In this document: positions 1,191-22,894 of the stretch, piece after piece
Layout of the letters: the number at the start of each line of letters is the position of its first letter
Numbering within the stretch: position 1 is the stretch's first letter
Source: Streptococcus pyogenes
GTDB taxonomy: Bacteria; Bacillota; Bacilli; Lactobacillales; Streptococcaceae
Reading direction: 5' to 3'
NCBI RefSeq assembly: GCF_002055535.1
Contig: NZ_LN831034.1
Location: 434,001 to 498,000, forward strand
Length of the DNA: 64,000 bases
Notes under the pieces: model-generated
Told to the model about the DNA's origin: nothing
The model's database searches: none
The model's input: only the letters and a program-made list of their open reading frames with translations
Translations under genes and position numbers: made by a program

Positions 1191-1267
1191 TAGGTAATGG
1201 TTAGCTCTGTGTAATGCTTGTACTTTATGTTAGTAGTAAACTAATTAAACGTAGGAGGATGAAATTT

Positions 1268-2973: not shown

Positions 2974-2974
2974 A

Positions 2975-4688: not shown

Positions 4689-4697
4689 GGTGTAACT

Positions 4698-5897
4698 ATG
4701 GATTTAAAAATTACAAACGGCTTTTATGACCCAAGTCATTTATCATACGAAGTAGTAGAACGCAAAGGCTTAGGTCACCCTGATACCTTAGCAGATGGAA
4801 TTGCTGAGCAAATTGAAATTGATTACTCACTTTATTGTTTGGACAAGTTTGGTGTTATTCCACATCATAATTTTGATAAGATTATTATCCGAGGGGGACA
4901 TTCAGTTCAGGATTTTGGTGGAAGTGACTTTATTGAACCAATTAAAATTATTTTTCTAGGTAGGGCGAGCAAAAAATGTTTTAATAGTTCAATTCCACTT
5001 TTTAAAATTCAGAAAAAGGCTGCAACTAAATATTTAAATAGAATTTTACCTAATTTAGATGTTGAAAATTATGTAGAATTTGAGACATTGACCTCAGATT
5101 TTACTACAAAAACTAATTGGTTCTCGCCTGAAGCAATAGAAGATTTACCGGAGTATCTAGATGTACCAAAGGCAAATGATACAGCTACAATGATAAGTTA
5201 TTGGCCATTAACAATTTCTGAAGAATTAGCATTAATGATTGAAGGGTATTTTTATAAATTAGATAAGAATGAATTACCAACGCCAAGATTTACTAAAATG
5301 GGTGGTGATATTAAAGTAATGGTCGTAAGGAACGATTTAGAATATTCTATTAGAATAAATTTTCCTTTAATAAGTAAATTTTTTAACAATGATATTGAAA
5401 GTCAGTTGTATGTTGATAAACACGTAGAAAAAATTAAGAAATATATTGAACAAAAGTATAAAAACATAAGCTTTTCTATTGATTACCATTATTATTTAAC
5501 TACTACAGGTTCTTGTATTGATTTTGGAGAAGAAGGTGCAGTTGGTCGAGGTAATAAAACTCATGGTATCATATCAAGTTTTAGGCCAAATACTATGGAA
5601 GCACCAGCTGGAAAAAATTGTACTTATTTTGTAGGAAAGGTTTGGGGATTTTTGTCTGATACTATTGCCAAAGAAATTTATGAAGCATTCAATACTCCCT
5701 GTCAAATCATTATGCAATTAAATATTGGATCAAAATTGTATAGACCAACCCATTTATTTATTCAGACAGAAGAAAGTGTTGATCAAGAAAGAGTATTAGA
5801 AATTGTTAACAGGCATTTAAATAATGGTAAACAAAATACTAATTTAATCTTGTCAACTCAACATTTTATTCCTAAAACCAATGTCTATGATGGATAA
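4698..5897 (+). CDS. Archaeal-type S-adenosylmethionine synthetase
   Basis: 399 aa, matching the archaeal MAT family (AdoMet_Synthase) and not the bacterial MetK family. Evidence is ERKGLGHPDTLADGIAE at residue 22, IIRGGHSVQDFGG, ATMISYWPL, FTKMGGDIKVMV, TTTGSCIDFGEEGAVGRGN and MEAPAGKNCTYFVGK. The expected reaction is ATP plus methionine to SAM. It follows the oxidoreductase gene after 9 nt and overlaps the next gene by 17 nt. No methyltransferase or radical-SAM gene is seen in the operon, so the product may serve an unlinked enzyme, or the enzyme may use another thiol or amino acid. The family's distribution suggests horizontal transfer. Confidence 0.88.
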   Translation: MDLKITNGFYDPSHLSYEVVERKGLGHPDTLADGIAEQIEIDYSLYCLDKFGVIPHHNFDKIIIRGGHSVQDFGGSDFIEPIKIIFLGRASKKCFNSSIPLFKIQKKAATKYLNRILPNLDVENYVEFETLTSDFTTKTNWFSPEAIEDLPEYLDVPKANDTATMISYWPLTISEELALMIEGYFYKLDKNELPTPRFTKMGGDIKVMVVRNDLEYSIRINFPLISKFFNNDIESQLYVDKHVEKIKKYIEQKYKNISFSIDYHYYLTTTGSCIDFGEEGAVGRGNKTHGIISSFRPNTMEAPAGKNCTYFVGKVWGFLSDTIAKEIYEAFNTPCQIIMQLNIGSKLYRPTHLFIQTEESVDQERVLEIVNRHLNNGKQNTNLILSTQHFIPKTNVYDG

Positions 5898-6849
5898 AAC
5901 TGTTTTATATTTTGGGTTGGTTGAAATTTCTTTTGATGTGCCTGACTTTATATTTCAAAAAATAAAAGAGCAGAATAATAAAATTAGATATTATAGCAAA
6001 TCAATAAATATATTAGGTAGTGTAAAATTTATTAACAGCAATCAGCAATTTATAGAATATGATGGCAATGGAAATATTTTAGTTTATGGAAGATTAAAGT
6101 ATTTTAAAGAAGGAATTTCATTATACTACATTGGAGAGTACTTAGCTGAATGTCTCTTGATTGAACATAGTGACACCTTATTAATTCATGCAGCAGCAGT
6201 TTATAATCCTTTATCTGGCCATTCAATTTTACTATTAGGAGATAAAGGTGCTGGAAAAACTACGGTTGCAATAAGGCTTTGTATAGAACATGGGTATCAC
6301 CTTATTGGTAATGACCAAGTAATATTTGGTTCGAACTCTGGAATACTACTAACTTATGCAGGGACATCTTTCTTTAAAATAAGAAGGACAGCTGTTTTGT
6401 CGGACAATTTACTGTTTAAATTATTTAGCAAATTTTTTAATCGTTCATTACAATTTAATAAGGCAAGTTGGGATGATAAAATTTCAATTTTCCCAAAGGA
6501 GTTGGGAATACGAACTTGTAATTTTTCTACTGAAATCTCAAAAATTTATTATATAAAGACAGACAAGAAAGAAAAGCAAATTTATCATTCAATTTGGAGT
6601 GATAGTTTAGCAAGTCTATATCTAAATGAGCTATTGGGAAGGCATATTTCTGGACAGGTTGCATGTTTTCAATCAGATAATGGAAAATATTTTTCTACAA
6701 TGCCTTTGATAAATTATGAAAAAAATAATCGGGTACGAGAACAGATAGTGAAGGGTATTTTCGCTAAACAAAAATTATTTAAAATTACAGCAGCTACGCC
6801 AGCTAAGATTGCAGAAGCGATTATAGAAAATGTTAAGAAAAACTCATAG
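5881..6849 (+). CDS. HprK-like P-loop kinase
   Basis: 322 aa. A Walker A motif lies near residue 120 (SILLLGDKGAGKTTVA), preceded by TLLIHAAAVYNP and followed by LIGNDQVIF, the order seen in HPr kinase-related proteins found in peptide-modification and sugar gene clusters. The true HprK signature region present in the gene at 37703 is absent, so HPr is probably not the substrate. Start uncertain: ATG at 5881, 5887 or 5890, all inside the end of the SAM synthetase gene. It may phosphorylate a small molecule or carrier made by the operon. Confidence 0.7.
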   Translation: MSMMDKTVLYFGLVEISFDVPDFIFQKIKEQNNKIRYYSKSINILGSVKFINSNQQFIEYDGNGNILVYGRLKYFKEGISLYYIGEYLAECLLIEHSDTLLIHAAAVYNPLSGHSILLLGDKGAGKTTVAIRLCIEHGYHLIGNDQVIFGSNSGILLTYAGTSFFKIRRTAVLSDNLLFKLFSKFFNRSLQFNKASWDDKISIFPKELGIRTCNFSTEISKIYYIKTDKKEKQIYHSIWSDSLASLYLNELLGRHISGQVACFQSDNGKYFSTMPLINYEKNNRVREQIVKGIFAKQKLFKITAATPAKIAEAIIENVKKNS

Positions 6850-6903
6850 TGTGGGTGAATTTGGGGATTAATATGAAGTATTGAAAAAGGAGTAAGAGTA
6901 ATT

Positions 6904-7893
6904 ATGTTTGTGATAGGCATTCCAACTTTAAATGAGGCAGATAATATCAGTAGATTAGTTAAACAAATTGATGAGTATGCTGTAAATTTAGGGAAAGAAA
7001 TTATTATTATTAATTCGGATAGTAAAAGTACAGATGGAACTCCGCAGATTTTTTTAGAAACCAAAACTTATAACACCAAAGTTTCGATAGTATCAGAAGC
7101 TAAAGGAAAAGGTTATAATGTGAGAAATATTTTCGAATATGCAATAAATCATGTGCCGAATTTCTCCGGTTTAATTTTGATTGATGGAGACGTTGTCTCA
7201 ATGAAAAAAATGTGGTTAGAAAAGATGTTTATAGCAATTGAATCTGGAAATGATCTTATAATCCCAAATTATGCTAGAAAATCTTTTGAAGGAAATGCGA
7301 CAAACCATTTTATTTATCCCATGTTAGTGAAAATTTTCAAACGTGATATGCCTTATCAATGCATCTCTGGTGATTTTGGATTTTCAAGAGGATTGATAAA
7401 AGATTTAACTTTGAAATGTAATTGGCACAAATATACATTAGGTTACGGGATAGATATTTTTTTAACCTTAACAGCTATATTAAAGTCATACAAAATTAAG
7501 GAAATCGATTTACAATCAAAGATTCATAAAAAAAGCTTTGAGAAAATTGAAAAAATTTTTTTAGAAGTTTCACAAAGTTTCTTCGAAACTATTAATGATA
7601 ATTCTTTGAATCAAGATAAGTTACGTTTAAATATAAATTTTGAAAGTCATTCAAGACAGTTTATTAAGTCCAGTGATATCCTATCCAGCAATGATATCGA
7701 GAATTTAAAGTTAAGAGCGTTGTTTTTATTACAGGAAGAAAAACAGTATCTACATGGGCTGTCAGAGGTAGAATGGGACGGAATTTTGTCTAATACAATT
7801 AACAATATTTATAGATATAGTAGTGAGGAACATTCGTTATATTTATTACCACTTTATTTATTGAGAGTATACAATTATCTAAAGTACAACTAA
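6904..7893 (+). CDS. Family 2 glycosyltransferase
   Basis: 329 aa, GT-A fold. FVIGIPTLNEADNISRLV opens the nucleotide-binding domain, IIIINSDSKSTDGTPQIF is the second element and LILIDGDVV the metal-binding DxD-type motif. FGFSRGLIKDL and GYGIDIFL resemble glucosyl-3-phosphoglycerate synthase and mannosylglycerate synthase relatives. No membrane segment is evident. RBS AAAAAGGAG lies upstream of ATG 6904. With the nucleotide-sugar dehydrogenase at 8586 it suggests that the operon product carries a sugar or uronic acid. Donor and acceptor are unknown. Confidence 0.82.
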   Translation: MFVIGIPTLNEADNISRLVKQIDEYAVNLGKEIIIINSDSKSTDGTPQIFLETKTYNTKVSIVSEAKGKGYNVRNIFEYAINHVPNFSGLILIDGDVVSMKKMWLEKMFIAIESGNDLIIPNYARKSFEGNATNHFIYPMLVKIFKRDMPYQCISGDFGFSRGLIKDLTLKCNWHKYTLGYGIDIFLTLTAILKSYKIKEIDLQSKIHKKSFEKIEKIFLEVSQSFFETINDNSLNQDKLRLNINFESHSRQFIKSSDILSSNDIENLKLRALFLLQEEKQYLHGLSEVEWDGILSNTINNIYRYSSEEHSLYLLPLYLLRVYNYLKYN

Positions 7894-9827: not shown

Positions 9828-11036
9828 ATGAACAATAGGAAAAAAAATATTCAATATTTAGTGTATAGTAAAGTTATATATCGAATTGGCGATGTTATGT
9901 TTGATTTTGCTAACAATACTTTTCTTGCTGGGCTTAATCCAGCGTCTCTATCATTAGTTGCAGTATATCAGTCTCTAGAAAGTGTCATAGGTGTTCTATT
10001 TAATTTATTTGGTGGAGTCATTGCAGACAGTTTCAAGCGGAAAAAAATTATTATTACTACAAATATCTTATGTGGCACAGCTTGCTTAGTACTCTCGTTC
10101 CTAACAAAAGAGCAATGGTTGGTTTATGCCATTGTACTAACTAATGTTATCTTGGCATTTATGAGTGCTTTTTCTAGTCCATCCTATAAAGCATTTACAA
10201 AAGAAATTGTTAAAAAAGATAGTATATCACAACTTAATTCATTGCTAGAGACAACAAGTACTGTAATCAAAGTAACAGTTCCTATGGTAGCAATTTTCTT
10301 ATATAAGCTACTTGGTATACACGGTGTATTACTATTGGATGGACTATCATTTCTAATAGCTGCTTTACTAATTTCCTTTATTTTACCTGTTAATGACGAA
10401 GTGGTGATAAAGGAGAAGGTGACAATCAGAGAAATATTTAACGATTTAAAAATAGGATTTAAATATGTTTACAGCCATAAGTCCATCTTTATTATTACCG
10501 TTCTTTCTGCACTTGTTAATTTTTTTCTAGCCGCTTATAATTTATTGTTGCCCTATAGTAATCAAATGTTTGGAGAAATTTCAACTGGACTTTATGGCAC
10601 TTTTTTAACAGCAGAAGCAATTGGTGGATTTATTGGGGCAATATTAAGTGGTTTTGTGAATAAAGAATTATCAAGTATGAGATTGATATTGTTTCTATCT
10701 TTATCAGGACTGATGTTAATGTTAGCTCCCCCATTTTATATTATGTTTCATAATGCAATTATTTTAGCTTTGTCACCAGCTTTATTCAGTTTATTTCTTT
10801 CCATCTTTAATATTCAATTTTTTTCTCTTGTCCAGAAAGATGTTGATAACGATTTTTTAGGGAGAGTGTTTGGTATTATCTTTACAATAACTATTCTTTT
10901 TATGCCTATTGGGACTGGCTTTTTCTCGGTGGCATTAAATCCTAACAATAGCTTTAATCTTTTTATTATTGGTTCGTGCATTACTACATTGTCATTAGTA
11001 TTTAGAATATTATTTAAAAAGTATAATATTCGTTAA
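9828..11036 (+). CDS. MFS efflux transporter
   Basis: 402 aa, about 12 predicted membrane helices. The loop after helix 2 reads GGVIADSFKRKKIII, the MFS A-motif (GxxxDxxxRKK), and SPSYKAFTKEIVKKD is typical of the macrolide/enterobactin exporter branch. It is the last gene of the plus-strand cluster, 84 nt after the dehydrogenase, and is followed by a strong terminator. The natural reading is export of, or self-protection from, the operon product; uptake is less likely for this branch. Confidence 0.82.
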   Translation: MNNRKKNIQYLVYSKVIYRIGDVMFDFANNTFLAGLNPASLSLVAVYQSLESVIGVLFNLFGGVIADSFKRKKIIITTNILCGTACLVLSFLTKEQWLVYAIVLTNVILAFMSAFSSPSYKAFTKEIVKKDSISQLNSLLETTSTVIKVTVPMVAIFLYKLLGIHGVLLLDGLSFLIAALLISFILPVNDEVVIKEKVTIREIFNDLKIGFKYVYSHKSIFIITVLSALVNFFLAAYNLLLPYSNQMFGEISTGLYGTFLTAEAIGGFIGAILSGFVNKELSSMRLILFLSLSGLMLMLAPPFYIMFHNAIILALSPALFSLFLSIFNIQFFSLVQKDVDNDFLGRVFGIIFTITILFMPIGTGFFSVALNPNNSFNLFIIGSCITTLSLVFRILFKKYNIR

Positions 11037-11138: not shown

Positions 11139-11348
11139 CTAGATATTATTATCTACAATTTCTACTATATCTTCAATCTTACAATCAAGTGCAATACAAA
11201 TTTCCAATAAAATATCAGTAGTGATATTTTCCCCTTTTCCCAATTTTGCGATCGTGGAAGAACTAATCCCAGCTTCTTGCCTGAGCTTTGTTTTGGTCCA
11301 ACCTTTATCAATAAGAAGTTTCCATAATTTATTGTAACTAAATCTCAT
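11139..11348 (-). CDS. Small XRE-type regulator
   Basis: 69 aa, almost all helix-turn-helix (KTKLRQEAGISSSTIAKLGKGE, read in two parts), of the short Cro/C1 type. Start chosen at ATG 11348 (MRFSYNKLWKLL) because AAAGGAG lies just upstream; the longer reading is unneeded. It overlaps the end of the ABC-3C ATPase gene by 11 nt and shares its direction, so it is probably co-transcribed and may regulate the system. A DNA-binding role is clear; its targets are not. Confidence 0.82.
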   Translation of the reverse strand: MRFSYNKLWKLLIDKGWTKTKLRQEAGISSSTIAKLGKGENITTDILLEICIALDCKIEDIVEIVDNNI

Positions 11349-12996
11349 CTGAGTTTTCTCCTTTGTTCCATGAAATACCGTAGAGTTCATTTCCGTTACT
11401 AGAGAGTCTCAATACCGTATTTTCTGACAAGAGTTGATTAGCATCTGGAGAATAAGAGCTGGCTTTATCGAAGACTAAAAAGACTTGTTTGTTCAATGAC
11501 CTTGACTGGTCATATAGCTTCAAAAGTGCTTCAGTCGCTTGGTAGCTAACATTACTCAAGAGTAATGAATCGTGTGCGAGTGCTGGCAGATTAGTAAGGT
11601 AGAGCATTACTAAGTCGAATACAATCATCCCTTTAAACTTAGTTCCTGTACCATCATCATCTGGTGTATAGAAGGAGTAGCTATTGTGAGCATTTAGGTT
11701 AATTTGAGGAGCTTTGCGAATATCTGGATATAGAATGTTATTGACTTCACGCATCTTACTGTTGATTTTTACTTCTAGATCTAGAAGGATATCTTCTGTA
11801 CTGCGTTTCAAGTCAGCGTCCGTTTCTGATTTTTCTTTGGATAGACCAGACTCCTTTAAGTAGGCCTCGTTTTGTTCTTTTAGTGCATTGATTGTAGCTG
11901 TTAGTTTAGAGTAGTTTTCTAAGTACTCACTTGAAAGATTTGGGATGTTTCCTAGTTCTTGAAGTTCTTGGTTTAGAGTTGTTAATTGACTCTCTAATTC
12001 GTCGATCTCAGCTATTAGGGATTCACGTTCAGTTGAGAATTCGGAATCTAAAATAGTTTCCAATTTTTTGTGGTAAGCTTCAACTTCATATAATTTTTTG
12101 AGATTAGTATCTGGGAAGTATTGTTGAAGCTCTGTTAAGTCAGATTCAGTAGGATATAAGCCAAATTCGATACTGATGTCCAATAGCTTAAGACGTCTTT
12201 GCTTGTCCCGAAGACTGCTTTCTAACTCCAGCTTAGTATTTCTAAGTTGGAGTTTTTGTTGATTTTTTTAAATATCATCAGAGTCAATTTTATCTTGATG
12301 AGTATCTTGGAGATGTGCTAAATCATATTCCAATCTTTTTATTTCTGAGACATTTGCTTCAAATTGCTTTTTACCGCCAACCAGGTTGGAGATGAAGGCA
12401 TACCTGCGAGCATTACGAAAAGTTGTTAACTGGTCGCTCTTATCTTTCAGACGTTCTTTGTATCGTGCAATGTTATCATACAAATTAAACAGTTGGATGA
12501 GAGTAGTAATAGATTCAGAAGATTTTTGGCTCGAATAAACTTGTAAGGGGAAATCGGTATTTTGATTACTTTTTCCTGCAATCCTAAAGAAGCCACTCAT
12601 AGCTAATCGGAATGATAGCTCTGGAGAATCTAAATGATATCGTTTCTTAAGTTTGTTAAGAAAAATTCCTAGGTCCATTGTTTCACCGGTTGGAGAGTAG
12701 CTCTTGTCACACACTAGAATGATATCTGGGTTGGCCGTATCTCTTGAAAAATAAAACTTTTTCTCAAATTGAAAGCAGAAGTAGATAGGATGATCACCTA
12801 ATTTTTTAACCGCAATTGATTTTAGATAGCTATTACCTCCAAAGATGAAATCAATGGCTAATAGTGAGGAGGATTTGCCGATAGAGTTATCAGCTAAATC
12901 CATCCCCATAATCACGTTTAACCCATGGTGGAAGCAGATTGGTTCCCGAATTTCTCCGTGTTTCTTAAATACTGGAGACCACATTTCTATAAGCAT
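11338..12996 (-). pseudogene. ABC-3C system ATPase (DUF2326), interrupted by TAA
   Basis: Two adjacent open segments (12268-12996 and 11338-12183) lie in the same frame and are separated only by one TAA at 12268-12270, after which KNQQKLQLRNTKLELESS continues. The N-terminal half has an SMC-like P-loop (NVIMGMDLADNSIGKSSSLL). The middle is coiled coil. The C-terminal half has FKGMIVFDLVMLYL and VFLVFDKAS, the DUF2326 Walker B region. Full length would be about 552 aa, usual for the family. Such ATPases work with a middle component and an effector in ABC-three-component conflict systems, both encoded next to it. The stop probably inactivates it unless read through. Confidence 0.8.
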
Positions 12997-13211
12997 AATT
13001 TTACTTCTCCTTCATTAGACATTTCAATAGCGTTCAATGCATACAAGCAATCCATTATGGATAGAAAATCTGTAGGATCATCCAACTCTTCTGAGATAGC
13101 GTGAAAGATATCTTTGACGTTTGAGTTTCTACTTTTGATTTCATTTAGCACTCTAGGCAAATAAGCAAGGGTGCTTTTTTGATAGGAGTAAAGTTTATTT
13201 GGTAATTGCAT
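12987..13211 (-). CDS. ABC-3C middle component-like protein
   Basis: 74 aa, helical, reading like a winged-helix (SYQKSTLAYLPRVLNEI, LSIMDCLYALNAIEMSNEG). ABC-three-component systems carry a small middle component between the effector gene and the DUF2326 ATPase gene, and this one sits exactly there, overlapping the ATPase start by 10 nt and abutting the effector stop. It is assigned mainly from that position and its size. It would bridge ATPase and effector. Confidence 0.65.
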   Translation of the reverse strand: MQLPNKLYSYQKSTLAYLPRVLNEIKSRNSNVKDIFHAISEELDDPTDFLSIMDCLYALNAIEMSNEGEVKLCL

Positions 13212-14305
13212 TATTCAAGTACCTCGCATTTTTGGATAAAGTAAGAGACAATCATCTGACAGAAGTAGATGTCCTGTAGTGTAGCCAGATGGAGTTTTTC
13301 CGAAATAGTATTGAAAATAGCCAGATTATTATGCTTGGCTGCTTTTAACTTTTTATACATCGATCGCGTTTGATATTGGATTTTCTCGTAATCAATTTTT
13401 CCTTGTTTGTCCAAATTTACGATGATTTTTTGAATGGTTAAGTAGTTATCAATAACTTGGTTTTTAACCAATTGATAAAGCGTACGATTGTTCTCAGGTG
13501 ATATCTTATCAGTCAATTGCTTCGAGTCATAGGAGATATTATATTCATCACATTTTAGTTTATTGAGACTAGTCAAAACTGAAACAATTCCACTGTCTAA
13601 CTTCATATCAGAAATCGCTTGTTGGCTGTTATGTGCAGAGACTAGAATCTTTTTAACATTTTTTAGAGTTGTTACAATTTTTTTGCGCCTATCTGCTTGA
13701 TAGGTTAAAAAACCATCTGGGCAGAGGGCTATCAGATTCAGTGCTTCAGCGTCCTTATCTTTTTCAATGGCTGAAACCTCGTAATTTTCTGCTGCTAAGT
13801 TGCCACTGGTTAGAATGAGTGGTCTATCACAGCCTGGGCATGCACAACAGTTATTAGATTCTGTTAACAAGAACTGCCCGTATTGTTTTTTGAGTTGATT
13901 CGACTGGGTAGTGAACGCTGTATTTTGCACAGTGGTTAATTTTACAATCCCTGTCTTCTCTCTGATGGTTACCAGAAGATACCTTGGAATTGCGGTGTCG
14001 ACTTGACCATGGTGCCTTTTGGGCAGGGCTATAAGGATATGAGTCCACCGTCCAAGGAACTCTATAAACTCATGATGGTAGGGAAAATCTAACATGTTGG
14101 TCATCCAGTCCTTAAATGGATGGGACAAAACGTGGTGATGCGACAAGCCCCTGGAGGCAACATCAAGCCAGATAAGGAAAAATCTGTTGAGAAGATTGAC
14201 GGTATTGTAGGTCTTATCCTGGGGCTTGACCGTTGCATTTGCCGCCAAGGTGATGAAGCTAGCGTCTATGATGAGCGAGGGATATTGAGTTTTTAGTTGA
14301 GTCAA
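13211..14305 (-). CDS. ABC-3C effector-like protein with zinc-finger/HNH remnant
   Basis: 364 aa. A central cluster reads NNCCACPGCDRPLILTSGN and ends ALNLIALCPDGFLTYQ. This is the layout of HNH modules found in ABC-three-component effectors, where LCPxCH would be expected; here the second Cys and the His are missing. The C-terminal 150 residues are helical and may be the domain that contacts the middle component. The longest reading starts at TTG 14305, inside a palindrome and without a ribosome-binding site. The real start may be internal, or the gene may be truncated at its 5' end. Confidence 0.55.
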   Translation of the reverse strand: MTQLKTQYPSLIIDASFITLAANATVKPQDKTYNTVNLLNRFFLIWLDVASRGLSHHHVLSHPFKDWMTNMLDFPYHHEFIEFLGRWTHILIALPKRHHGQVDTAIPRYLLVTIREKTGIVKLTTVQNTAFTTQSNQLKKQYGQFLLTESNNCCACPGCDRPLILTSGNLAAENYEVSAIEKDKDAEALNLIALCPDGFLTYQADRRKKIVTTLKNVKKILVSAHNSQQAISDMKLDSGIVSVLTSLNKLKCDEYNISYDSKQLTDKISPENNRTLYQLVKNQVIDNYLTIQKIIVNLDKQGKIDYEKIQYQTRSMYKKLKAAKHNNLAIFNTISEKLHLATLQDIYFCQMIVSYFIQKCEVLE

Positions 14306-14326
14306 CTCTAAAAACGTGATACAATG
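14295..14326 (+). promoter_or_regulatory. Toxin-antitoxin promoter and operator
   Basis: AGTTGA-G-TCAACT (14295-14307) is a perfect inverted repeat just upstream of a -10-like sequence (GATACAAT, about 14318-14325) and the antitoxin ribosome-binding site AAAGGAGG. RelB-type antitoxins repress their own promoter at such palindromes; operator function here is inferred. Confidence 0.55.
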
Positions 14327-14350
14327 TCGTTACAAAAAAGGAGGATAACC

Positions 14351-14653
14351 ATGGCTAAAACGGGAACTTTGAATTTACGAGTTGATGATTCAGTAAAAAG
14401 TGCGGCAGATGATATTTTGAAACGCTTAGGTATTCCTATGTCAACTGCGATTGATATGTTTTTGAATCAGATTATTTTGACTGGGGGTATCCCATTTGAT
14501 GTTTCTCTACCTGAAGCGCCTCAACGAGTTAATGTTGATTACATGAGTCAGGAGAAGTTTTATGATAAGCTTATCACCAGCTTTGAAGATGCGAAAACTG
14601 GCAACCGTCAGGATGTCAGAGAATTTCTATTTCAATTGAAGGAAAATGCTTAA
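14351..14653 (+). CDS. RelB/DinJ-family antitoxin
   Basis: 100 aa. The ribbon-helix-helix N-terminus is clear (TLNLRVDDSVKSAADDILKRLG, read in parts, then MSTAIDMFLNQIILTGGIPF). ATG 14351 is preferred over the upstream in-frame ATG at 14324, because AAAAGGAGGATAACC sits directly before it. It binds the operator and neutralises the toxin through its C-terminal tail. Its stop overlaps the toxin ATG by one base, the usual coupled arrangement. Confidence 0.9.
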   Translation: MAKTGTLNLRVDDSVKSAADDILKRLGIPMSTAIDMFLNQIILTGGIPFDVSLPEAPQRVNVDYMSQEKFYDKLITSFEDAKTGNRQDVREFLFQLKENA

Positions 14654-14958
14654 TGAAAGAATATCAGGTCACCATGTCGGATGATGCTAAAGCAGATTTG
14701 CTGAGCATCTATCACTATGTTCGTGATGAACTCTGTGCACCACAGGCAGCGGATGATCTTCTTGAGAGGTTATCCCAAGGAATGTTATCACTATCCATTT
14801 TTCCTGAACGTTGTGCCATCATTGAGGATCTGATTGGAAAAGGCTATACCTTCAGACAACTGATTGTCAAAAAATATCGCATTGTATATCATGTTCTGGA
14901 AGATGAAGTTATAATTGTTGCGGTCGTCTATGGATCACGTCATATGAATAATTGGTAA
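14653..14958 (+). CDS. RelE/ParE-family toxin
   Basis: 101 aa. The family marks are KADLLSIYHYVRDELCAP, SIFPERCAII, FRQLIVKKYRIVYHVLEDE and IIVAVVYGSRHM. The second group is typical of the ParE-like branch (YRIvY…V..v.H.r). Members either cleave ribosome-bound mRNA (RelE) or poison gyrase (ParE); the sequence alone does not settle which. Coupled to the antitoxin upstream. Appears intact. Confidence 0.88.
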   Translation: MKEYQVTMSDDAKADLLSIYHYVRDELCAPQAADDLLERLSQGMLSLSIFPERCAIIEDLIGKGYTFRQLIVKKYRIVYHVLEDEVIIVAVVYGSRHMNNW

Positions 14959-15353: not shown

Positions 15354-16186
15354 ATGGGACTACTTGATTTAATTGGAAGAAAAAGGGCTAGAGATAAGCC
15401 CCAAAACAGTTATGAAGGTCAGGACTTTTCCTACCTCTTTGGTCGCACGACTAGTGGCGAGAATGTGGATGAGTTTAAGACTATGCAGACGACGGCAGTC
15501 TATGCCTGTGTGCGTGTTCTTGCTGAAGCGGTGGCGTCACTTCCTATTCACATCTATGAACGGACAGAAAATGGGAAGGAGAAAAAGCTGGACCACCCAC
15601 TGTACTTTCTTCTTCATGATGAACCCAATCCAGAGATGTCCTCCTTTATCTTTCGAGAGACAATCATGAGCCATCTTTTGATATGGGGAAATGCCTATGT
15701 ACAGATTATACGAGATAAAAGTGGTATGGTATCGCTACTGCTAAAGCAGAAGGCGAGCGTTCTGATAAGAAAGCTGCTCTTGATTATCTGGCAACGGATG
15801 CCTTAGAAGCACGAATTGCAGCACTTCACAAAGCTAAGATTGATGAGTTGACCGTCTCTAGTTCAGCATGGATGCCAAGGCTTATCTCCCAACAGATTCT
15901 ATCAGAGTATGTGAAGAGCCTAGAAGTTGAAGCTGATAAGGTCGTTATTCCAGGACAGAATACTCCAGTCTTTAGTTGGGATAGGGATGGGAATGGGAAT
16001 CTTTCCATTGACACACCGCTCCTAAAGGTGAGAGGGGAAAGTCTAGCGACACAAGCTGACCTTACAACCATCTCTTTAACTCCTGGTCCAAAGGGAGAAC
16101 TCTGGCAGACAAGTGTTGAAAGGTTGGATATAAAAGTAGACAAGCACATCAGCCTAACCTTCAAAAATGGCGTACGGATTGATTGA
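15354..16186 (+). pseudogene. Prophage scar: portal N-terminus joined to a tail protein C-terminus
   Basis: From 15354 (RBS AAGGAGGG) about 125 residues match an HK97-type portal N-terminus (TMQTTAVYACVRVLAEAVAS, DHPLYFLLHDEPNPEMSSFI, LIWGNAYVQIIRD). Near 15727 the family match stops. A different frame then carries KAALDYLATDALEARIAALH and a beta-rich tail region ending LTFKNGVRID at 16186, resembling the C-terminal part of a phage minor structural or tail protein. A large deletion has removed everything between. The frame shift at the junction means no fused protein is expected. Confidence 0.72.
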
Positions 16187-16599: not shown

Positions 16600-16941
16600 A
16601 TGATGAAACCACCTTTTACAGTTACGAATACCATGTTAAATAAGGTAGTAGAGATTTCTAAAATTATTGGTAATTTAGAATTACAAGTACAGAAAGATTT
16701 AAAATTAAGAAAAGAAAATCGTATTCAGTCTATTCACTCATCACTCGCTATTGAACAAAATTCTTTAACAGTAGAACAAATAACAGCCATTATTGATGGG
16801 AAAAGAGTGTTAGGGAACCCCCGTGAGATAAGAGAAGTAAAAAACGCTTATGAAGCTTATGAAGAAATTTTAACGCTAACTCCCTATGATGAATCACATT
16901 TTTTTAAAATGAAGAAATTTCAACAGTACATTTACCGATAA
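16600..16941 (+). pseudogene. Fic-family protein, N-terminal fragment
   Basis: The first 100 residues read like the N-terminal domain of a Fic/DOC-type protein (RIQSIHSSLAIEQNSLTVEQ, NPREIREVKNAYEAYEEIL, LTPYDESHF). The catalytic HPFxxGNGR motif that should follow is absent: the frame passes into another gene near 16905. The AMPylation domain is therefore lost. The intact promoter and ribosome-binding site may now serve the downstream genes. Confidence 0.75.
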
Positions 16942-17789
16942 CAACATCGTCAATCACAAGTCCTATGGGGTTGGGGAGTGATTCGCTACCTGTAAAAATT
17001 TCCTTATTTGATGTTGATACCTATCTTGCAGATTCGATGCAGTTTCACTTAGAGTATATACTTAGACTTTTTCCAAAGTCAGGAGTTCATTACTTAATGC
17101 CTACTTTTAGAGGAGAAGCAGTAGATCATCGACATTTATCGCAATTTTATCATAGTGAGTGTGAGATAGAGGGAGATTTACACTATGTGATGAATTTAGT
17201 GGATAGATATATTAAGTTTCTGGTTAGTGAAATTCTTAGAGAGTGTCGAGATAGTATTTTTGCTATAACAAAAGATGTAAGTCATTTGGAAAGTTTTATT
17301 GATCGAAAGATACCAATTATTACGTTTGAAGAGGCTTGTACTATATTGGAAAATGAAATAGATTCATTGGAATATAATGATGAACATCATTTTTATGTGT
17401 TAACAGATGTTGGGGAAAAGAAATTAATGGAACATTTTGAGGGAGTAGTTTGGGTAAAAAATTATCCCTGTAAAAGTGTCCTTTTTTATCAAAGGTTCTC
17501 AACAGATCATCTATTTGCCTATAATGCAGATTTGTTGTTAGGAATAGGCGAAACTGTAGGTTGTGGAGAAAGATGCGAAACATATGAAGAAGTTGTAGAA
17601 AATATGAATTATTTACAAGTAGATGCTTCTGAATATAGTTGGTATTTAGAAATGAAAAAAACAAGACCTATGAAATCTTCAGGATTTGGTTTAGGAGTAG
17701 AGCGTTTAATAGCGTGGATATTGAAGTGCGATGATGTTCGAAAAGTTCAATTAATCAGTAGAGAAAATGGGATTGATTATTTACCATAA
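16908..17789 (+). CDS. AsnRS/asparagine synthetase-like class II enzyme, 5' end damaged
   Basis: A class II aminoacyl-tRNA synthetase core without an anticodon-binding domain. STVHLPITTSSITSPMGLGS, SMQFHLEYILR, motif 2 (FRGEAVDHRHLSQFYHSECE), LLLGIGETVGCGERC and motif 3 (GFGLGVERLIAWIL) are visible. It most resembles AsnRS paralogues that activate aspartate, such as archaeal asparagine synthetase. The frame opens at 16908 after a stop. ATG 16965 falls inside conserved sequence, so 25-30 residues are missing or the true start is frameshifted against the Fic fragment (MKKF at 16910). Next gene follows after 13 nt. Likely reaction: amino-acid adenylation, probably Asp or Asn; inferred. Confidence 0.72.
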   Translation, partial: NEEISTVHLPITTSSITSPMGLGSDSLPVKISLFDVDTYLADSMQFHLEYILRLFPKSGVHYLMPTFRGEAVDHRHLSQFYHSECEIEGDLHYVMNLVDRYIKFLVSEILRECRDSIFAITKDVSHLESFIDRKIPIITFEEACTILENEIDSLEYNDEHHFYVLTDVGEKKLMEHFEGVVWVKNYPCKSVLFYQRFSTDHLFAYNADLLLGIGETVGCGERCETYEEVVENMNYLQVDASEYSWYLEMKKTRPMKSSGFGLGVERLIAWILKCDDVRKVQLISRENGIDYLP

Positions 17790-17802
17790 AGGAGGAAGAA
17801 AA

Positions 17803-19050
17803 ATGAAAAAGAATATTTTAATTGTAGGTGGAGGTCCAGAGATAACTATATGTTATGATTTAATTAACAATAGTACGGAGTATAATTTCTTTTCAGTATC
17901 AGAAATTCCTACGATGTATCCAGAGTTGTTTGTAGAAACAATTGAAACCAGCTTTAGAAATTTTGGAAAGACGATTGAACAAATTAAAGAGCTCAAATAT
18001 TCTATTGATGCTGTTGCTTGTTGGGATGAAGCTTTAACGCATATAGCTGATGATATTTCAAAAGAATTAGGATTGAACCCTATTTCATCGCTAGATTCTC
18101 AATCATTCAGGTTTAAAGATCGAATGAGAATGGTATGTGAAGCTGGTGGACTAAAAATGCCCAAATATAAAATTATCAATCAATTTTCAGATACAAATAA
18201 AATAATCAATTGGAAATATCCATTAATAGTGAAACCAACCTCTTTTTTAGCAAGTATAGGAGTGAAAAAAGTTTATAATTTTTCAGAATTACAACAAGCA
18301 GTTTCTCAAATGCTTAATGTAAAATTTCCGGTTTACATAGCTTCAGGGGTATATGAATTGGGGGAATTATATAATTTAGAACCTAGAGTTTTGGTGGAAG
18401 AGTTTATTGATGGAGAAGAATATAGCTTAGAGAGCGTGGTAAGAAATGGAATCTATACACCTCTAGGGATAACTAAAAAAATAGTGGATGAAAAATTATT
18501 TATGGATGAAATAGGCCATATTTTCCCTTCAAATTTAAACAAAGAAGAAAAAAGTAGAGTATATTCTTGGGCAGAAAAATTACATCAAATTTTGCAATTA
18601 AATCATATTACGACTCATACAGAATTTAGAATTGGAAGAAATGGAGATATTATTTTAATAGAAATTGGAGCAAGAATCGGTGGAGATTGTATTCCAAACT
18701 TAATGAAAAACAGCTTTATAGTCAAGGGATTTGATTTTTATAATACTTATTTAAAAGCTAGACTAGGTTTACAAGAAGAGTTAAATACAGACACTAATAA
18801 GTTTTCAGGAATTGTATTTTTCAGACTCAATCCAGAGAATTACGGAAAAATATTTAATGGAGTGAGTTACGATGCACCTAAAACTTCACTAATATTTGAA
18901 GAAAAGATATATAAAAAGGAAGGAACTGTATTGCCAAATCCGATTAATTGGAGTAATGAGAGAGTAGGATATGTCTGTTTGGAAAACAAGGAATACGCTG
19001 TGCTAGAAAAGGAGATGAAAGAAATATTAAAATCATTGTCAATAGAGTAA
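17803..19050 (+). CDS. ATP-grasp carboxylate-amine ligase
   Basis: 415 aa. An N-terminal Rossmann-like part (ILIVGGGPEITICYDLI) is followed by the ATP-grasp fold: FKDRMRMVCEAGGLKMPKY, YPLIVKPTSFLASIGVKK with the ATP lysine, VEEFIDGEEYSLE, and metal ligands in ILIEIGARIGGDCIP. Relatives join a carboxylate to an amine through an acylphosphate, as in L-amino-acid ligases. The start is ATG 17803 after AAAGGAGG; an earlier ATG at 17767 lies in the upstream gene. It sits between the AsnRS-like and the S66 peptidase genes, suggesting a small amide or dipeptide product. Confidence 0.85.
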   Translation: MKKNILIVGGGPEITICYDLINNSTEYNFFSVSEIPTMYPELFVETIETSFRNFGKTIEQIKELKYSIDAVACWDEALTHIADDISKELGLNPISSLDSQSFRFKDRMRMVCEAGGLKMPKYKIINQFSDTNKIINWKYPLIVKPTSFLASIGVKKVYNFSELQQAVSQMLNVKFPVYIASGVYELGELYNLEPRVLVEEFIDGEEYSLESVVRNGIYTPLGITKKIVDEKLFMDEIGHIFPSNLNKEEKSRVYSWAEKLHQILQLNHITTHTEFRIGRNGDIILIEIGARIGGDCIPNLMKNSFIVKGFDFYNTYLKARLGLQEELNTDTNKFSGIVFFRLNPENYGKIFNGVSYDAPKTSLIFEEKIYKKEGTVLPNPINWSNERVGYVCLENKEYAVLEKEMKEILKSLSIE

Positions 19051-19994
19051 ATAGTGAAAGAAACATCAAATCTATAGGTATTTGTTCACCCTCCTATCCG
19101 GGGACATTTCATTATCAGAAACGATATAAGAGAGGAGTAGAATTTTTACAAAATAAAGGATTTACTATAGTAGAGGGAAATTTAACAGGAAAAGAAGGTT
19201 ATAGAGGGGAAATTTCAGGAGGAGTTCAAGACAGAGCTGAAGAATTAAATCAACTTATTCCGCGTGTGGATGTCATCATGACTTCCATAGGTGGCTACAA
19301 TTCTAATTCTGTATTAAAGTATATAGACTACGATCTATTTAAACAGAAATCTCCTATCTTTATTGGATATTCTGACACAACAGCTCTTGCTTTAGCCTTA
19401 TATAAAAAGACTGGATGTATAACTTACCTGTCTCAGAGCGTTATCTCTAATTTTGGAGAGTTTGAACCGTTTAATGAATTAAATTATTTCTATTTTGACT
19501 TCATGCTTCAGAGTAAGTGCGAAACCTTAATGGTACAAATACCAGATGTTTGGACGGATGAGTGGATAAATTGGGAAACCTATGAAAGAACCAAAAAAAC
19601 AAATAAAAATGAGTGGATTATTTTTAACAAAGGTGAATTTAATGGTACTTTGATCGGAGGAAATCTCGATACCATTGTAGGAATAATAGGAACTGAGTAT
19701 ATGCCAAAAATAACAGAGGATACCATACTCTTGTTAGAAGATGTATATACGGATCTAGGAAGACTATATAGGAATTTCACAACGCTTGCCTTACATGGTA
19801 TTTTTGATAAAATAGGAGGACTTATTATTTCAAAATTTGAAACAATAGGGGAAAATAGCGATGTTATTAATGATATCATTAATGAATTTGTAGGGCATAG
19901 AAAGATTCCTATTTTATTGAATTTTGATTGTGGTCATACCCATCCTAGCTGTTTAATGCCTATTGGTGGTAAAATTACGTTGAGTTTAAGCTAA
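19026..19994 (+). CDS. S66 peptidase (MccF/LD-carboxypeptidase-like), irregular start
   Basis: The frame is open from 18960 and homology begins at SIGICSPSYPGTFHYQKRY near 19071, far upstream of the first standard start (GTG 19266). No ATG, GTG or TTG is in frame before it. ATT 19026, 11 nt after AAGGAG, is the best candidate, giving about 322 aa. Catalytic features: serine in IFIGYSDTTAL, Glu in ILLLEDVYTDLG and His in NFDCGHTHPSCLMPIGG, the S66 triad. MccF of this family cuts aspartyl-adenylate compounds to give self-immunity; LdcA trims peptidoglycan. The AsnRS-like neighbour favours an MccF-like role. It overlaps the ATP-grasp gene by 25 nt. Confidence 0.75.
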   Translation: MKIIVNRVNSERNIKSIGICSPSYPGTFHYQKRYKRGVEFLQNKGFTIVEGNLTGKEGYRGEISGGVQDRAEELNQLIPRVDVIMTSIGGYNSNSVLKYIDYDLFKQKSPIFIGYSDTTALALALYKKTGCITYLSQSVISNFGEFEPFNELNYFYFDFMLQSKCETLMVQIPDVWTDEWINWETYERTKKTNKNEWIIFNKGEFNGTLIGGNLDTIVGIIGTEYMPKITEDTILLLEDVYTDLGRLYRNFTTLALHGIFDKIGGLIISKFETIGENSDVINDIINEFVGHRKIPILLNFDCGHTHPSCLMPIGGKITLSLS

Positions 19995-20006
19995 AAGAGG
20001 TGGTAT

Positions 20007-21226
20007 ATGAACAATAGAGAAAGTAAATTAACGGGTTTCTATGATGTTTTTGAGGAAGAAGTAGAAAAAATAAATCATATTCATAATGTTTTTGTAGAGG
20101 AGTCAGAAAAATTTGGCTTTCAACAGATGAAGATTGCTATGGTAGAGCATAGAAAAAAATACTTAGATGCAACCGATGTTCATTATACAAAATACAAAAA
20201 TATTTGAAGTTCATAGAGTAAAAGAAGAGTCAGTATACGCCCTCCAATCAGATTTGGCACTTAGTATGTCGCCGTTGTATAGCTAACTTACCACAACAAA
20301 TACCTGTAAAGTGGATTCAAGACAGAGTGTTATTTAGAGATAGAATTCCTACATATAAAGGTTATAGAAGACAATTTAATCAAATATTATTAGGTGCATG
20401 GGGAATAGAATCAGCTTATGTGGATGCAGAAATAATAGTTGCAACTTGGCGAGGCTTGCAACGATTTAAAGGAATTAAAGTAGAATTTATTCAACTGTCT
20501 AACAAAAATATATTTGATGTTTTGGAGAAAGATTTATCTAAAAAGTTAAGATTTGAAGATATTTCAATTGAAGCAATATTGGGTAAATATTTGTGTAATA
20601 ATGACATAGAAATCATAAAATGTCTTTATGAAAAAGATAAAATAAATATGGAACTCTTAATTAGTCTTATTTCAAAAATAAGTAACAAACTGGTGAAACA
20701 GGAATTTATAAAAGTTTTAGTCTTGTATGAGTATGTAAAAAACTTTTTACCAGTAGATTGCATTTACTTTTCATTATCTAATTTATATGGAACAGGACAT
20801 TATTCAAGTATGAACTATAAAATCTTCATACGAACTAAGTCAGGTGACATATTTGATATTGCTGATGGTGGTAGAATTGATGATATGGTTTCTAAATTTA
20901 ATAAAGTAAACGTATTAGGAGTTTGCATGGGAATAGGAACCACTGTTTTATCACAAGAGATTGAGTATGAAATTGAAGATAGAATAATGATATTAGTTGA
21001 AAAAATAGATGTGAAAATCTATAAGAATTGTCTTGAATTAGCAAATAAATTAAGTGGGTATCATTGTTCCGTTTTTGAGTTTCCTTATAAAAAAATCAAA
21101 AAGTTTTTTAAACATGAATTATATTCGAGACATCATTATATTATTGTTCGATTAGATGGAAGTATGGAATACAGATTTTCATCTGTAGCTTTAAAAAATA
21201 AAATTAAAAGCATACTTGATAGTTGA
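20007..21226 (+). pseudogene. HisRS/HisZ-like class II synthetase paralogue, two frameshifts
   Basis: ATG 20007 (RBS AGAGGTGG) encodes a HisRS-like N-terminus (GFYDVFEEEVEKINHI, FGFQQMKIAMVEHRK). The frame stops at 20207, but the next frame continues KIFEVHRVKEESVYALQSDL, and a third from about 20272 gives IANLPQQIPVKWIQDRVLFR and YKGYRRQFNQILLGAWG. The rest, to 21226, has GTGHYSSMNYKIFIR, IFDIADGGRIDDMV and LGVCMGIGTTVL, the second half of a HisRS core. No C-terminal anticodon domain. Two indels, near 20190 and 20270, break it. Alternative name: ATP phosphoribosyltransferase regulatory subunit-like. It may have been the second amino-acid-activating enzyme of the island. Confidence 0.7.
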
Positions 21227-21596: not shown

Positions 21597-22392
21597 CTAA
21601 TTTTCTTCTTTCTGATTAGGGGTTAGTCCTAGATTAGCCGTATGTGGGTTGTAATTGTTATAAAAATTCTCAATGTATTCAAAGCAGTCTAATTGAACCT
21701 GTTTGATACTTTTTTTGGTTGATTTGTCTATGCTTTAAATACTTGAAAAATGCTTCAGTTACGGCATTATCATAAGGATATCCAGGTTTAGAAAAAGAAT
21801 GCATGATAGTGTTGTCATCAATTATTTTTCTCAATTCCCTGGCCTTAAATTGTGACCCTTGGTCGGAATGAAAGAGAAGTGTTCCTTCAATCTTTCTTTT
21901 ATTAAGAGCTAATTCTAGAGTGTCACATGCTAACTTTGCATCCATACGGTGACTCAGTTTCCAAGCAATACATTTTCTAGAATAGAGATCAAGTATTGCG
22001 CAGAGATAGACATATTTCTTATATCCAATAGAAATATAGGTGAAGTCAGTAGACCATACTTGATTAGGTTTGTCAGGATTAAATTTCTGGTTGAGTAAGT
22101 TTTGAGGATACGTTTTTTGAGTCCTTTTAAGAGCTGTTTTTGGCTTAACGGTAGCCATTTTAGGGAGCGCCATATTCTTCATTAGACGGTAAATTCTTCC
22201 TTCAGAGATTTTTGTGTCGTAGTCTCTTTGAAGAATGACTTTGATAGACTTCACACCAAGTCTTTTGTTTGCTTTGGTATAAATCTCAAGTATTTGTTTT
22301 CTATAAATTTGATTATCCAATTCTCTTTTTGAGGGCTTATGTTTTAGAAATTTATAGTAAGTGGAGCGATTGACACGTAAAACACGATACAA
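21597..22392 (-). pseudogene. IS3 transposase OrfB, frameshifted near the C-terminus
   Basis: DDE-type integrase core. RLMKNMALPKMATVKPK, then VWSTDFTYISIG (first Asp), LLFHSDQGSQFKA (second Asp) and KPGYPYDNAVTEAFFKYLK (Glu) are all present. The frame ends early at 21679, because an A7 run (T7 at 21710-21716 on the plus strand) has lost or gained a base. The next frame continues SIKQVQLDCFEYIENFY to ENYNPHT-like sequence and a stop at 21597. An OrfAB fusion could be made by -1 slippage at the A-run near 22473-22479. Confidence 0.82.
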
Positions 22393-22439
22393 GGTTGTTG
22401 TGACGTGTTCAAAGCGTAACCGATAAACAGCGAGGAGTC

Positions 22440-22715
22440 TTACTTTAAGTTTTGCATGAATATGGCACTTGCTTTTTTTAGGATAAGGTTCTCCTCTTCA
22501 AGCTGCGCATTACGTTTTTGTAGCTCTTGTATTTGCTTGGCAGTAAGTACAGAATTATCTTCGAGTTTGACTTGGGAATACTGTTTGATCCATTTTGCAA
22601 GCGCAGAAGCGGATACCCCATAGTCTTTACAGAGTTCAGACCGAGTTTTTCCAGTTTGATAAAGGTTAACAAGAGATTGTTTGAATTCTTCATCATAGCG
22701 TTTAACTGTTGACAT
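22440..22715 (-). CDS. IS3 transposase OrfA
   Basis: 91 aa from ATG 22715 (MSTVKRYDEEFKQSLVNLY), helix-turn-helix of the IS3 type (SELCKDYGVSASALAKWIKQ) and a leucine-zipper-like tail (IQELQKRNAQLEEENLILKK). The A-rich slippery run at the LKK codons (plus-strand T7, 22473-22479) lets ribosomes shift -1 into OrfB, the known way this family makes full transposase. Reads intact. Confidence 0.88.
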   Translation of the reverse strand: MSTVKRYDEEFKQSLVNLYQTGKTRSELCKDYGVSASALAKWIKQYSQVKLEDNSVLTAKQIQELQKRNAQLEEENLILKKASAIFMQNLK

Positions 22716-22894
22716 AGGCTGTCCTTTCGTTTTTGTGTCTTTTAAAACAGATTGTAACACACAAAGTTTTGTCTACTTTTATAGTATACATCCAGTGGTC
22801 ATTTATAAAAATAAAAAAAGTAGCAGTTCACTTCAAAAACGGTCAGGTTATCGAAATATAATCTGGCTGTTTTTTACGAATGGAATGAAAGCTG

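What the first reader, a model, noticed from the sequence alone, without database searches (positions are those of the whole stretch)
16908..21226. Two tRNA-synthetase paralogues, an ATP-grasp ligase and an MccF-like peptidase in one cluster
An AsnRS-like and a HisRS-like core without anticodon domains would activate amino acids without tRNA. The ATP-grasp ligase could form an amide. S66 peptidases of the MccF type destroy aspartyl-adenylate toxins. Together they suggest a small aminoacyl-nucleotide or dipeptide antimetabolite pathway with built-in immunity. I do not know this four-gene set as a described system. The chain of reasoning from gene family to product is inference.
Basis: inference. 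Interest (0 to 1): 0.82.

Follow-up and report, generated by a model that had tools for sequence, protein, structure and literature searches.

The report
Decayed agrocin-like antibiotic gene cluster
Four neighbouring genes in a genome that matches Streptococcus pyogenes look like the broken remains of a pathway for an agrocin 84-type antibiotic, a false aminoacyl-nucleotide that jams a tRNA synthetase; relatives of its two core genes sit together in gene clusters of many other bacteria.

Summary
The four genes are real: an AsnRS catalytic core 40% identical to AgnA of the agrocin 84 plasmid, an ATP-grasp ligase of the BacD type, an S66 peptidase that is MccF (273 bits) rather than murein carboxypeptidase (65 bits), and a HisRS-family paralogue. 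The proposed class, an aminoacyl-nucleotide antimetabolite with MccF immunity, is supported by neighbourhoods: S66 in 67 of the 80 best AgnA-like genome loci against 0 of 34 AsnRS control loci; another aaRS homologue in 47 of 80 against 5 of 34. Paludifilum (L020) has all four genes open. Two details fail: the HisRS-like family has a C-terminal domain and has lost the motif-3 and HisA arginines. Product, amino acid and target of this version are unknown. New variant of a known kind.

The parts
16600..16941 (+). ORF remnant, 5' part of another gene that runs into the cut 5' end of the AgnA-like gene; Fic-like by recall only
   Evidence: ORF; no Pfam match. The resemblance to Fic N-termini comes from no call.
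16908..17789 (+). AgnA-like AsnRS catalytic core, truncated: open frame from 16908, first ordinary start codon 16965; lacks the long N-terminal helix of its relatives; motifs 2 and 3 kept
17803..19050 (+). ATP-grasp ligase of the L-amino acid ligase / BacD type, open, with AGGAGG upstream of ATG 17803
18960..19994 (+). MccF-like S66 peptidase: open frame; homologous from 19071; nucleophile Ser, and Trp-containing loop aligned; no ATG/GTG/TTG in frame before 19266
20007..20207 (+). HisRS-like pseudogene, N-terminal piece (frame 3)
20167..20286 (+). HisRS-like pseudogene, middle piece (another frame)
   Evidence: read by eye against the family
20222..21226 (+). HisRS-like pseudogene, C-terminal piece (third frame); homologous to the family from about the position of motif 2
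15354..15806 (+). phage portal protein remnant upstream; in other alleles it is joined to the HisRS-like C-terminus
   Evidence: PF04860 105.1 bits
21679..22760 (-). two ORFs of an insertion sequence downstream (IS3-type by recall, not scanned)
   Evidence: ORFs

Best explanation
The locus is the decayed remnant of an agrocin 84-type biosynthetic gene cluster. In the intact ancestor the AgnA-like enzyme, a class II AsnRS core with no tRNA-binding domain, would use ATP to build a nucleotide joined to an acyl group through an N-acyl phosphoramidate, a stable mimic of an aminoacyl-adenylate (inferred from agrocin 84). The HisRS-like protein would be the second, exchangeable synthetase paralogue that supplies or joins the acyl or amino acid part (inferred). 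The ATP-grasp ligase would add an amino acid cap (inferred from BacD homology). The MccF-like peptidase would cut the acyl-nucleotide bond inside the producer and so give immunity (inferred from MccF). Shown by sequence: the four families, the AgnA and MccF relationships, the recurrent AgnA-S66 association, an open four-gene version in Paludifilum, and the decay of this copy. In this species the pathway is very probably not working.
For: AgnA-like: 40.4% identity over 97% to pAgK84 agnA; motif 2 FRGE and motif 3 GFGLGVER kept. S66: 273 bits to B. anthracis MccF, 236 to E. coli MccF, 65 to murein tetrapeptide carboxypeptidase. S66 in 67 of 80 AgnA-like genome loci, within 5 kb in 59 of 80; 0 of 34 AsnRS control loci. 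aaRS homologue in 47 of 80 loci. Plasmid loci pair AgnA-like genes with a LeuRS (L095, L097) or AlaRS (L093, L094). Order AgnA, ATP-grasp, S66 as in the window in L014 and L072; all four genes open in L020. An AlaRS-like and an MccF-like domain share one open frame in L060 and L066. Passages: agnA is a truncated AsnRS homologue keeping the catalytic domain, agnB2 is the resistant LeuRS (PMC4392301); TM84 has a 5' N-acyl phosphoramidate bond (PMC5059758); MccF hydrolyses the aspartyl-AMP phosphoramidate bond (PMC7916415). Decay.
Against: No complete aaRS and no methyltransferase ORF stands between 16.6 and 21.7 kb of the window (ORF lists), though a methyltransferase is found in 41 of 80 relatives. 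L020 has no second full aaRS of the cluster in the stretch held. 13 of 80 AgnA-like loci show no S66, 8 of them with flanks of at least 9.2 kb on both sides. The aaRS association is weaker evidence: 5 of 34 control loci also have another aaRS gene, and some of the 47 are probably housekeeping. In the AgnA tree the window groups with metagenomic P0002-P0006, not with L020, L016 or L022, so the four-gene set is not one inherited unit. pAgK84 AgnA sits on a long branch (1.71). That AgnA makes the P-N bond is nowhere shown in what I read.
Confidence: 0.78

Rival explanations
1. The AsnRS-like gene is an ammonia-dependent asparagine synthetase, as NCBI names it, and the neighbours are unrelated genes brought together in a mobile region.
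For: NCBIfam NF005053 'asparagine synthetase A' 651 bits; archaeal AsnA 1nnh and 3p8t match at 55 and 50 bits; an insertion sequence and phage remnant flank the genes.
Against: NF005053 is 274 positions long, the length of this truncated ORF, so the score is near a self-match. AsnRS 1x54 scores higher (107 bits) and is the top fold match of an intact relative. The genome has a classical AsnA (TIGR00669, 593 bits). S66 beside the AgnA-like gene in 67 of 80 loci.
Confidence: 0.08
2. The locus is a resistance remnant: an MccF gene with neighbours kept against nucleotide antibiotics of competitors, not a producer's cluster.
For: S66 and ATP-grasp are the two genes whose frames are open over the conserved part in the window; MccF alone confers resistance in McC systems (recalled, and passage).
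Against: The AgnA-like and HisRS-like neighbours are biosynthetic-type genes that travel with S66 elsewhere; the S66 frame lacks an ordinary start codon; alleles P0124 and P0125 have lost the region.
Confidence: 0.08
3. The HisRS-like gene is the resistant target copy (HisRS immunity), so the product would be a histidyl-nucleotide.
For: HisRS family (TIGR00442); pAgK84 and several relatives carry a resistant or extra synthetase.
Against: The family lost the LRPEGT motif, the HisA Arg and the motif-3 Arg, so it should not charge tRNA-His. In L016 and L022 a ProRS over the TIGR00409 cut-off stands next to it.
Confidence: 0.04

Closest known systems
Agrocin 84 cluster of pAgK84 (agnA, agnB2, agnC5; CP000632.1, L097)
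   Same: AgnA-like AsnRS core (40.4% identity) and an S66 gene annotated MccF-like (29% to the window's; 156 bits to MccF); product a leucyl-adenylate mimic with a 5' N-acyl phosphoramidate (passage)
   Different: pAgK84 has a full resistant LeuRS and a methyltransferase beside agnA; the window has an ATP-grasp and a HisRS-like gene, no full aaRS, and is decayed
Microcin C (MccF of E. coli and B. anthracis)
   Same: the S66 immunity peptidase: 236 and 273 bits
   Different: in microcin C the P-N bond is made by a ThiF-type MccB on a ribosomal peptide (recalled); no MccA- or MccB-like gene was seen among the ORFs of the cluster
L020, Paludifilum halophilum
   Same: ATP-grasp, AgnA-like, MccF-like and HisRS-like genes, all open
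   Different: different order, with a methyltransferase and an MFS transporter; AgnA not in the same tree clade as the window's
BacD / L-amino acid ligase BL00235 (3vmm, 3vot)
   Same: ATP-grasp dipeptide-forming fold, 58.5 and 64.5 bits
   Different: substrates unknown; bacilysin has no AgnA or MccF gene (recalled)

Membership tests
Agrocin 84-type (AgnA/MccF) nucleotide antibiotic cluster | AgnA-like AsnRS core without tRNA-binding domain | tested here: met
   40.4% identity to agnA; core-only fold of intact relative P0002; the window copy is truncated
Agrocin 84-type (AgnA/MccF) nucleotide antibiotic cluster | MccF-like immunity peptidase in the cluster | tested here: met
   for the window; 67 of 80 relatives; start codon of the window copy doubtful
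Agrocin 84-type (AgnA/MccF) nucleotide antibiotic cluster | full-length resistant aaRS in the cluster | tested here: not met
   no full aaRS ORF between 16.6 and 21.7 kb; the HisRS-like gene is broken and its family lacks the catalytic arginines
Agrocin 84-type (AgnA/MccF) nucleotide antibiotic cluster | product with a P-N bonded acyl-nucleotide | not testable with these tools
   needs biochemistry
MccF (S66) | sequence closer to MccF than to LD-carboxypeptidase, with nucleophile Ser and Trp-containing loop | tested here: met
   273 against 65 bits; position mutated to Ala in 3t5m is Ser in the window
MccF (S66) | hydrolysis of aminoacyl-nucleotides | not testable with these tools
   no assay
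Histidyl-tRNA synthetase | motif-3 Arg and HisA-motif Arg (roles recalled) | tested here: not met
   lost in the family alignment against the HisRS of the same genome
HisZ (regulatory subunit of HisG) | partner HisG in the genome | tested here: not met
   0 hisG matches in G000, 13 of 14 control genomes ring
Asparagine synthetase A (NCBI name) | makes asparagine from aspartate and ammonia | not testable with these tools
   name rests on a model of 274 positions equal to this ORF; the genome has a classical AsnA
ATP-grasp L-amino acid ligase | sequence match to BacD or BL00235 | tested here: met
   64.5 and 59.1 bits; substrate not tested

The most novel reading that the evidence does not exclude
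AgnA-like plus MccF-like proteins mark a large, mostly undescribed class of aminoacyl-nucleotide antibiotics in which AgnA builds a common P-N nucleotide head and an exchangeable second synthetase paralogue (ProRS-, AlaRS-, MetRS-, ThrRS- or GluRS-like, or the retooled HisRS-like protein here) decides which amino acid is attached and so which tRNA synthetase is jammed, often beside a full copy of that synthetase as self-resistance. The HisRS-like protein would be an enzyme of HisRS/HisZ fold that works without the usual motif-3 arginine. The S. pyogenes locus is a fossil of one such pathway.
Probability: 0.4. Interest if true: 0.82.

Novelty: new variant of a known kind. Interest (0 to 1): 0.62.

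Why it matters
Agrocin 84 is usually presented as a lone Trojan-horse antibiotic. Here its core pair (AgnA-like, MccF-like) recurs in loci labelled Bacillota, Pseudomonadota, Actinomycetota, Myxococcota, Chloroflexota, candidate phyla and one methanogen bin, with different synthetase homologues alongside. If the second paralogue sets the amino acid, the gene list itself predicts the target synthetase of each unknown compound, which is directly testable. For S. pyogenes it suggests that the lineage once carried such a pathway and is losing it in more than one way.

Tried and rejected
HisZ role of the HisRS-like protein: rejected, no hisG. Resistant HisRS copy: rejected by sequence. Sole asparagine supply: unlikely, separate AsnA. 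LD-carboxypeptidase: rejected. Streptomyces L087 and L088 carry HisRS homologues of another kind that keep the HisA Arg (RGHDYY, RGLDYY) and are not counted as the window's HisRS-like family. Viral contigs: no HisRS-like relative; the 23 AsnRS-like viral hits are ordinary AsnRS and served as controls. Plasmid records: no relative of the HisRS-like fragment. The first genome-contig scan with the single protein confirmed nothing; the second, with alignment A1, gave the 80 loci. Sampling for the HisRS-like family: 1 of 246 order genomes (own), 2 of 398 class genomes (own, and G741, whose coordinates agree with L020), 1 of 398 phylum genomes (own). The AgnA-like gene over the NF005053 cut-off: 1 of 197 genus genomes (own); 196 of 197 match below it through their AsnRS. 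The genome behind P0131 (named S. suis, 419 aa, 47% identical) could not be fetched, so its neighbours are unknown.

Papers: in the listings of ten searches I saw no paper that describes the AgnA-MccF-aaRS gene family as a class; the library is open-licence papers only, and Kim et al. 2006 (PMC1482666) is not held. Of PMC6429109, PMC4392301, PMC5047915, PMC7916415, PMC5059758 and PMC3675131 I saw passages; of the rest only listings.

Caveats on counts: the 80 loci are the best of 456 relatives ranked by similarity to the window, not a random sample, and include near-copies (L080/L084, L062/L064, L086/L092, L074/L085). The 47 loci with an aaRS homologue include probable housekeeping genes (GlyQS in L045 and L063, PheST, TyrRS); none were dropped. 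Controls: 34 AsnRS loci, 392,434 bases, 11 of them only 3.8 kb, against 1,415,591 bases in the 80; S66 0 of 34, but another aaRS gene in 5 of 34 (L123, L128, L129, L130, and weakly L141; AspRS and LysRS hits were left out of that print). In one search the ORF caller missed the AgnA frame in 12 of 85 loci, so one search used tblastn. In one search rows over 460 aa were left out (1 of 11 ProRS-type, 3 of 8 AlaRS-type). For the tree only P0002-P0006 of the 120 listed proteins were added, with their first 40 residues cut off. In L016 the S66 gene is in two pieces.
Full report
What is there. The window is G000:C1:434001-498000 of a 1.91-Mb single-contig genome. The nearest named proteins to the AsnRS-like and HisRS-like genes are from Streptococcus pyogenes at 99% identity (P0001, P0121), so I take the genome to be that species. 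Between a phage portal remnant (15354-15806) and an insertion sequence (21679-22760) lie four genes on the + strand: an AsnRS-like core (open frame 16908-17789), an ATP-grasp protein (17803-19050, AGGAGG before its ATG), an S66 peptidase (open frame 18960-19994) and a HisRS-family gene in pieces up to 21226.

The copy is decayed. Of 120 listed relatives of the AsnRS-like protein (1370 found), 119 are 316-362 aa; the exception is the near-identical P0001. The window's open frame starts at residue 42 of P0002. The model of P0002 has a helix at 20-42, the motif-1 helix of class II synthetases (name recalled), which is therefore missing; with the first start codon, at 16965, five residues that are invariant in alignment A4 (P51, T53, T54, S59, P60 of P0002) are lost too. 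The NCBI model that names the protein 'asparagine synthetase A' has 274 positions, the length of this cut ORF, and the open relatives in L020 and pAgK84 score 271 and 191 bits, below its cut-off of 322. The S66 frame matches MccF from 19071 but has no ATG, GTG or TTG before 19266. The HisRS-like gene is spread over three frames between 20007 and about 20300. Other alleles differ: P0122 has an S66 N-terminus joined to the HisRS-like C-terminus; P0124 (named S. pyogenes, 54 members) and P0125 (no name, 522 members) have the portal remnant joined to the HisRS-like C-terminus, so the genes between are missing there. That P0122 and P0125 are S. pyogenes is inferred from near-identity. At least two further deletions besides the window's state are the mark of a relic.

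The AsnRS-like gene is AgnA-like. Against plasmid records it matches 'agnA: Agrocin84-synthetase' of pAgK84 at 40.4% identity over 97%, and proteins of Exiguobacterium, Peribacillus and Xenorhabdus plasmids at 51.4, 49.3 and 47.8%. Motif 2 (FRGE) and motif 3 (GFGLGVER) are kept in the window. By fold the intact relative is closest to P. horikoshii AsnRS 1x54. The genome has a classical AsnA elsewhere (593 bits; S. pyogenes AsnA is also listed in a table of PMC3675131, passage).

The S66 protein is MccF. phmmer gives 273 bits to B. anthracis MccF, 236 to E. coli MccF, 138 to an MccF-like/LD-carboxypeptidase-family protein and 65 to murein tetrapeptide carboxypeptidase. The residue that is Ala in entry 3t5m is Ser in the window and in 3gjz, and the loop with two Trp (W-[ST]-D-E-x-INWE) aligns. 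The S66 proteins of L020 and pAgK84 (agnC5) are also best matched by MccF (209 and 156 bits); that of L014 is ambiguous (MccF 90 bits, MccF-like BA_5613 86 bits).

Neighbourhoods. Alignment A1 was scanned against genome contigs; 456 relatives were confirmed and the best 80 kept. By tblastn an S66 gene is within the fetched flanks in 67 of 80, within 5 kb in 59 of 80; a class I SAM methyltransferase in 41 of 80; an aaRS homologue other than the AgnA-like gene in 47 of 80 (loci per amino acid: Pro 13, Met 8, Ala 7, Leu 4, Asn 4, HisRS-like 3, His 3, Glu 3, Tyr 3, Phe 2, Gly 2, Thr 2). Some are likely housekeeping genes. Controls: among 34 loci of ordinary AsnRS (23 on viral contigs, 11 from the genus) S66 was found in 0 and another aaRS gene in 5. 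Of the 13 AgnA-like loci without S66, 8 have at least 9.2 kb on both sides, so the pairing is common and not universal.

Pairs of synthetase homologues. In L018, L024, L038, L047, L052, L066, L068, L069, L073, L074 and L085 (11 of 80), and on plasmid loci L093 and L094, two homologues for the same amino acid lie near the AgnA-like gene, usually one long and one short or diverged (ORF lengths in GC-rich loci are unsure). L039 and L095 have a LeuRS with a ProRS-type short paralogue. pAgK84 has the resistant LeuRS agnB2 (passages of PMC4392301 and PMC5059758). In L060 and L066 an AlaRS-like stretch and an MccF-like domain share one open frame (the AlaRS match is weak in Pfam, 22 and 18 bits against a cut-off of 30.3). 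All 10 aligned ProRS-type short paralogues keep the motif-3 Arg, and 2 of 5 aligned AlaRS-type ones do.

The HisRS-like protein. Twenty-six relatives of 407-425 aa are listed (P0126-P0151), among them proteins named from Streptococcus suis (P0131), Bacillus cereus and B. thuringiensis, and others lie in L020, L016 and L022 beside AgnA-like and S66 genes. The family keeps a pocket (FRDR, G-[YF]-R, GTGHY, DGGRI, C-x-GIG invariant or nearly so), but against the HisRS of the same genome it lacks LRPEGT, the HisA Arg and the motif-3 Arg. NCBIfam scores it slightly nearer to HisZ than to HisRS (108.6 and 101.1 bits for L020), yet this genome has no hisG. The model of P0131 has the HisRS fold with a C-terminal alpha/beta domain. 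In L016 and L022 a ProRS over the TIGR00409 cut-off (414 and 416 bits against 306.7) lies close by, so histidine need not be the amino acid.

Order and combination. AgnA, ATP-grasp, S66 in the window's order are found in L014 (Virgibacillus) and L072 (Peptococcaceae; its S66 is the nearest to the window's, 40.7%, but its ATP-grasp matched the Exiguobacterium one and not the window's). L020 (Paludifilum) has all four genes open in another order. In a tree of 91 AgnA-like rows the window groups with metagenomic P0002-P0006 (100/97), whose neighbours are unknown, and not with L020, L016 or L022. The combination is reshuffled rather than one inherited unit.

Mechanism. [quoted passage not shown] The simplest reading is that AgnA-like enzymes help to make the P-N bonded acyl-nucleotide and MccF-like enzymes undo it at home. 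That AgnA forms the P-N bond is inference. That the short paralogue (here HisRS-like) sets the acyl part, and that the ATP-grasp adds a cap, is further inference.

Verdict. Lacking the resistant synthetase lowers the claim that it is an agrocin-type cluster, not the claim that its ancestor worked like one.

Noticed in passing
window 1214-7893 (and MFS at 9828-11036): A run of genes with a shikimate dehydrogenase-like (356 bits), a CofE-like F420-0:glutamate ligase (181 bits, at its cut-off), an archaeal-type methionine adenosyltransferase (747 bits), an HprK-like and a glycosyltransferase-like protein; an odd set for a streptococcus that may be another small biosynthetic cluster.
   Followed up: partly
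window 11338-14305: ABC-three-component-like genes on the - strand: a DUF2326 ORF (11338-12183) next to a separate ORF (12268-12996) that may be its other part, and a CTD11 protein (13211-14305).
   Followed up: partly
window 14324-14958: RelB antitoxin / ParE toxin pair.
   Followed up: no
L060:18445-20637, L066:1698-4271 (-): AlaRS-like stretch and MccF-like domain in one open frame in Streptomyces AgnA-like loci; L055 looks the same from its ORF length.
   Followed up: partly
L026, L030, L041, L068: Two S66 genes in one AgnA-like locus.
   Followed up: no
NCBIfam NF005053: The 'asparagine synthetase A' model has 274 positions, equal to the truncated ORF; the two open relatives tested (L020, pAgK84) score below its cut-off.
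   Followed up: partly
L091: AgnA-like, S66, methyltransferase and ATP-grasp genes on a contig of a methanogen bin (Candidatus Methanovirga), grouping with Shouchella and Bacillus (100/100); transfer or a binning error.
   Followed up: no
L095:5068-6456: XyeA/XyeB cyclophane RiPP genes within about 5 kb of the Xenorhabdus AgnA-like cluster.
   Followed up: no
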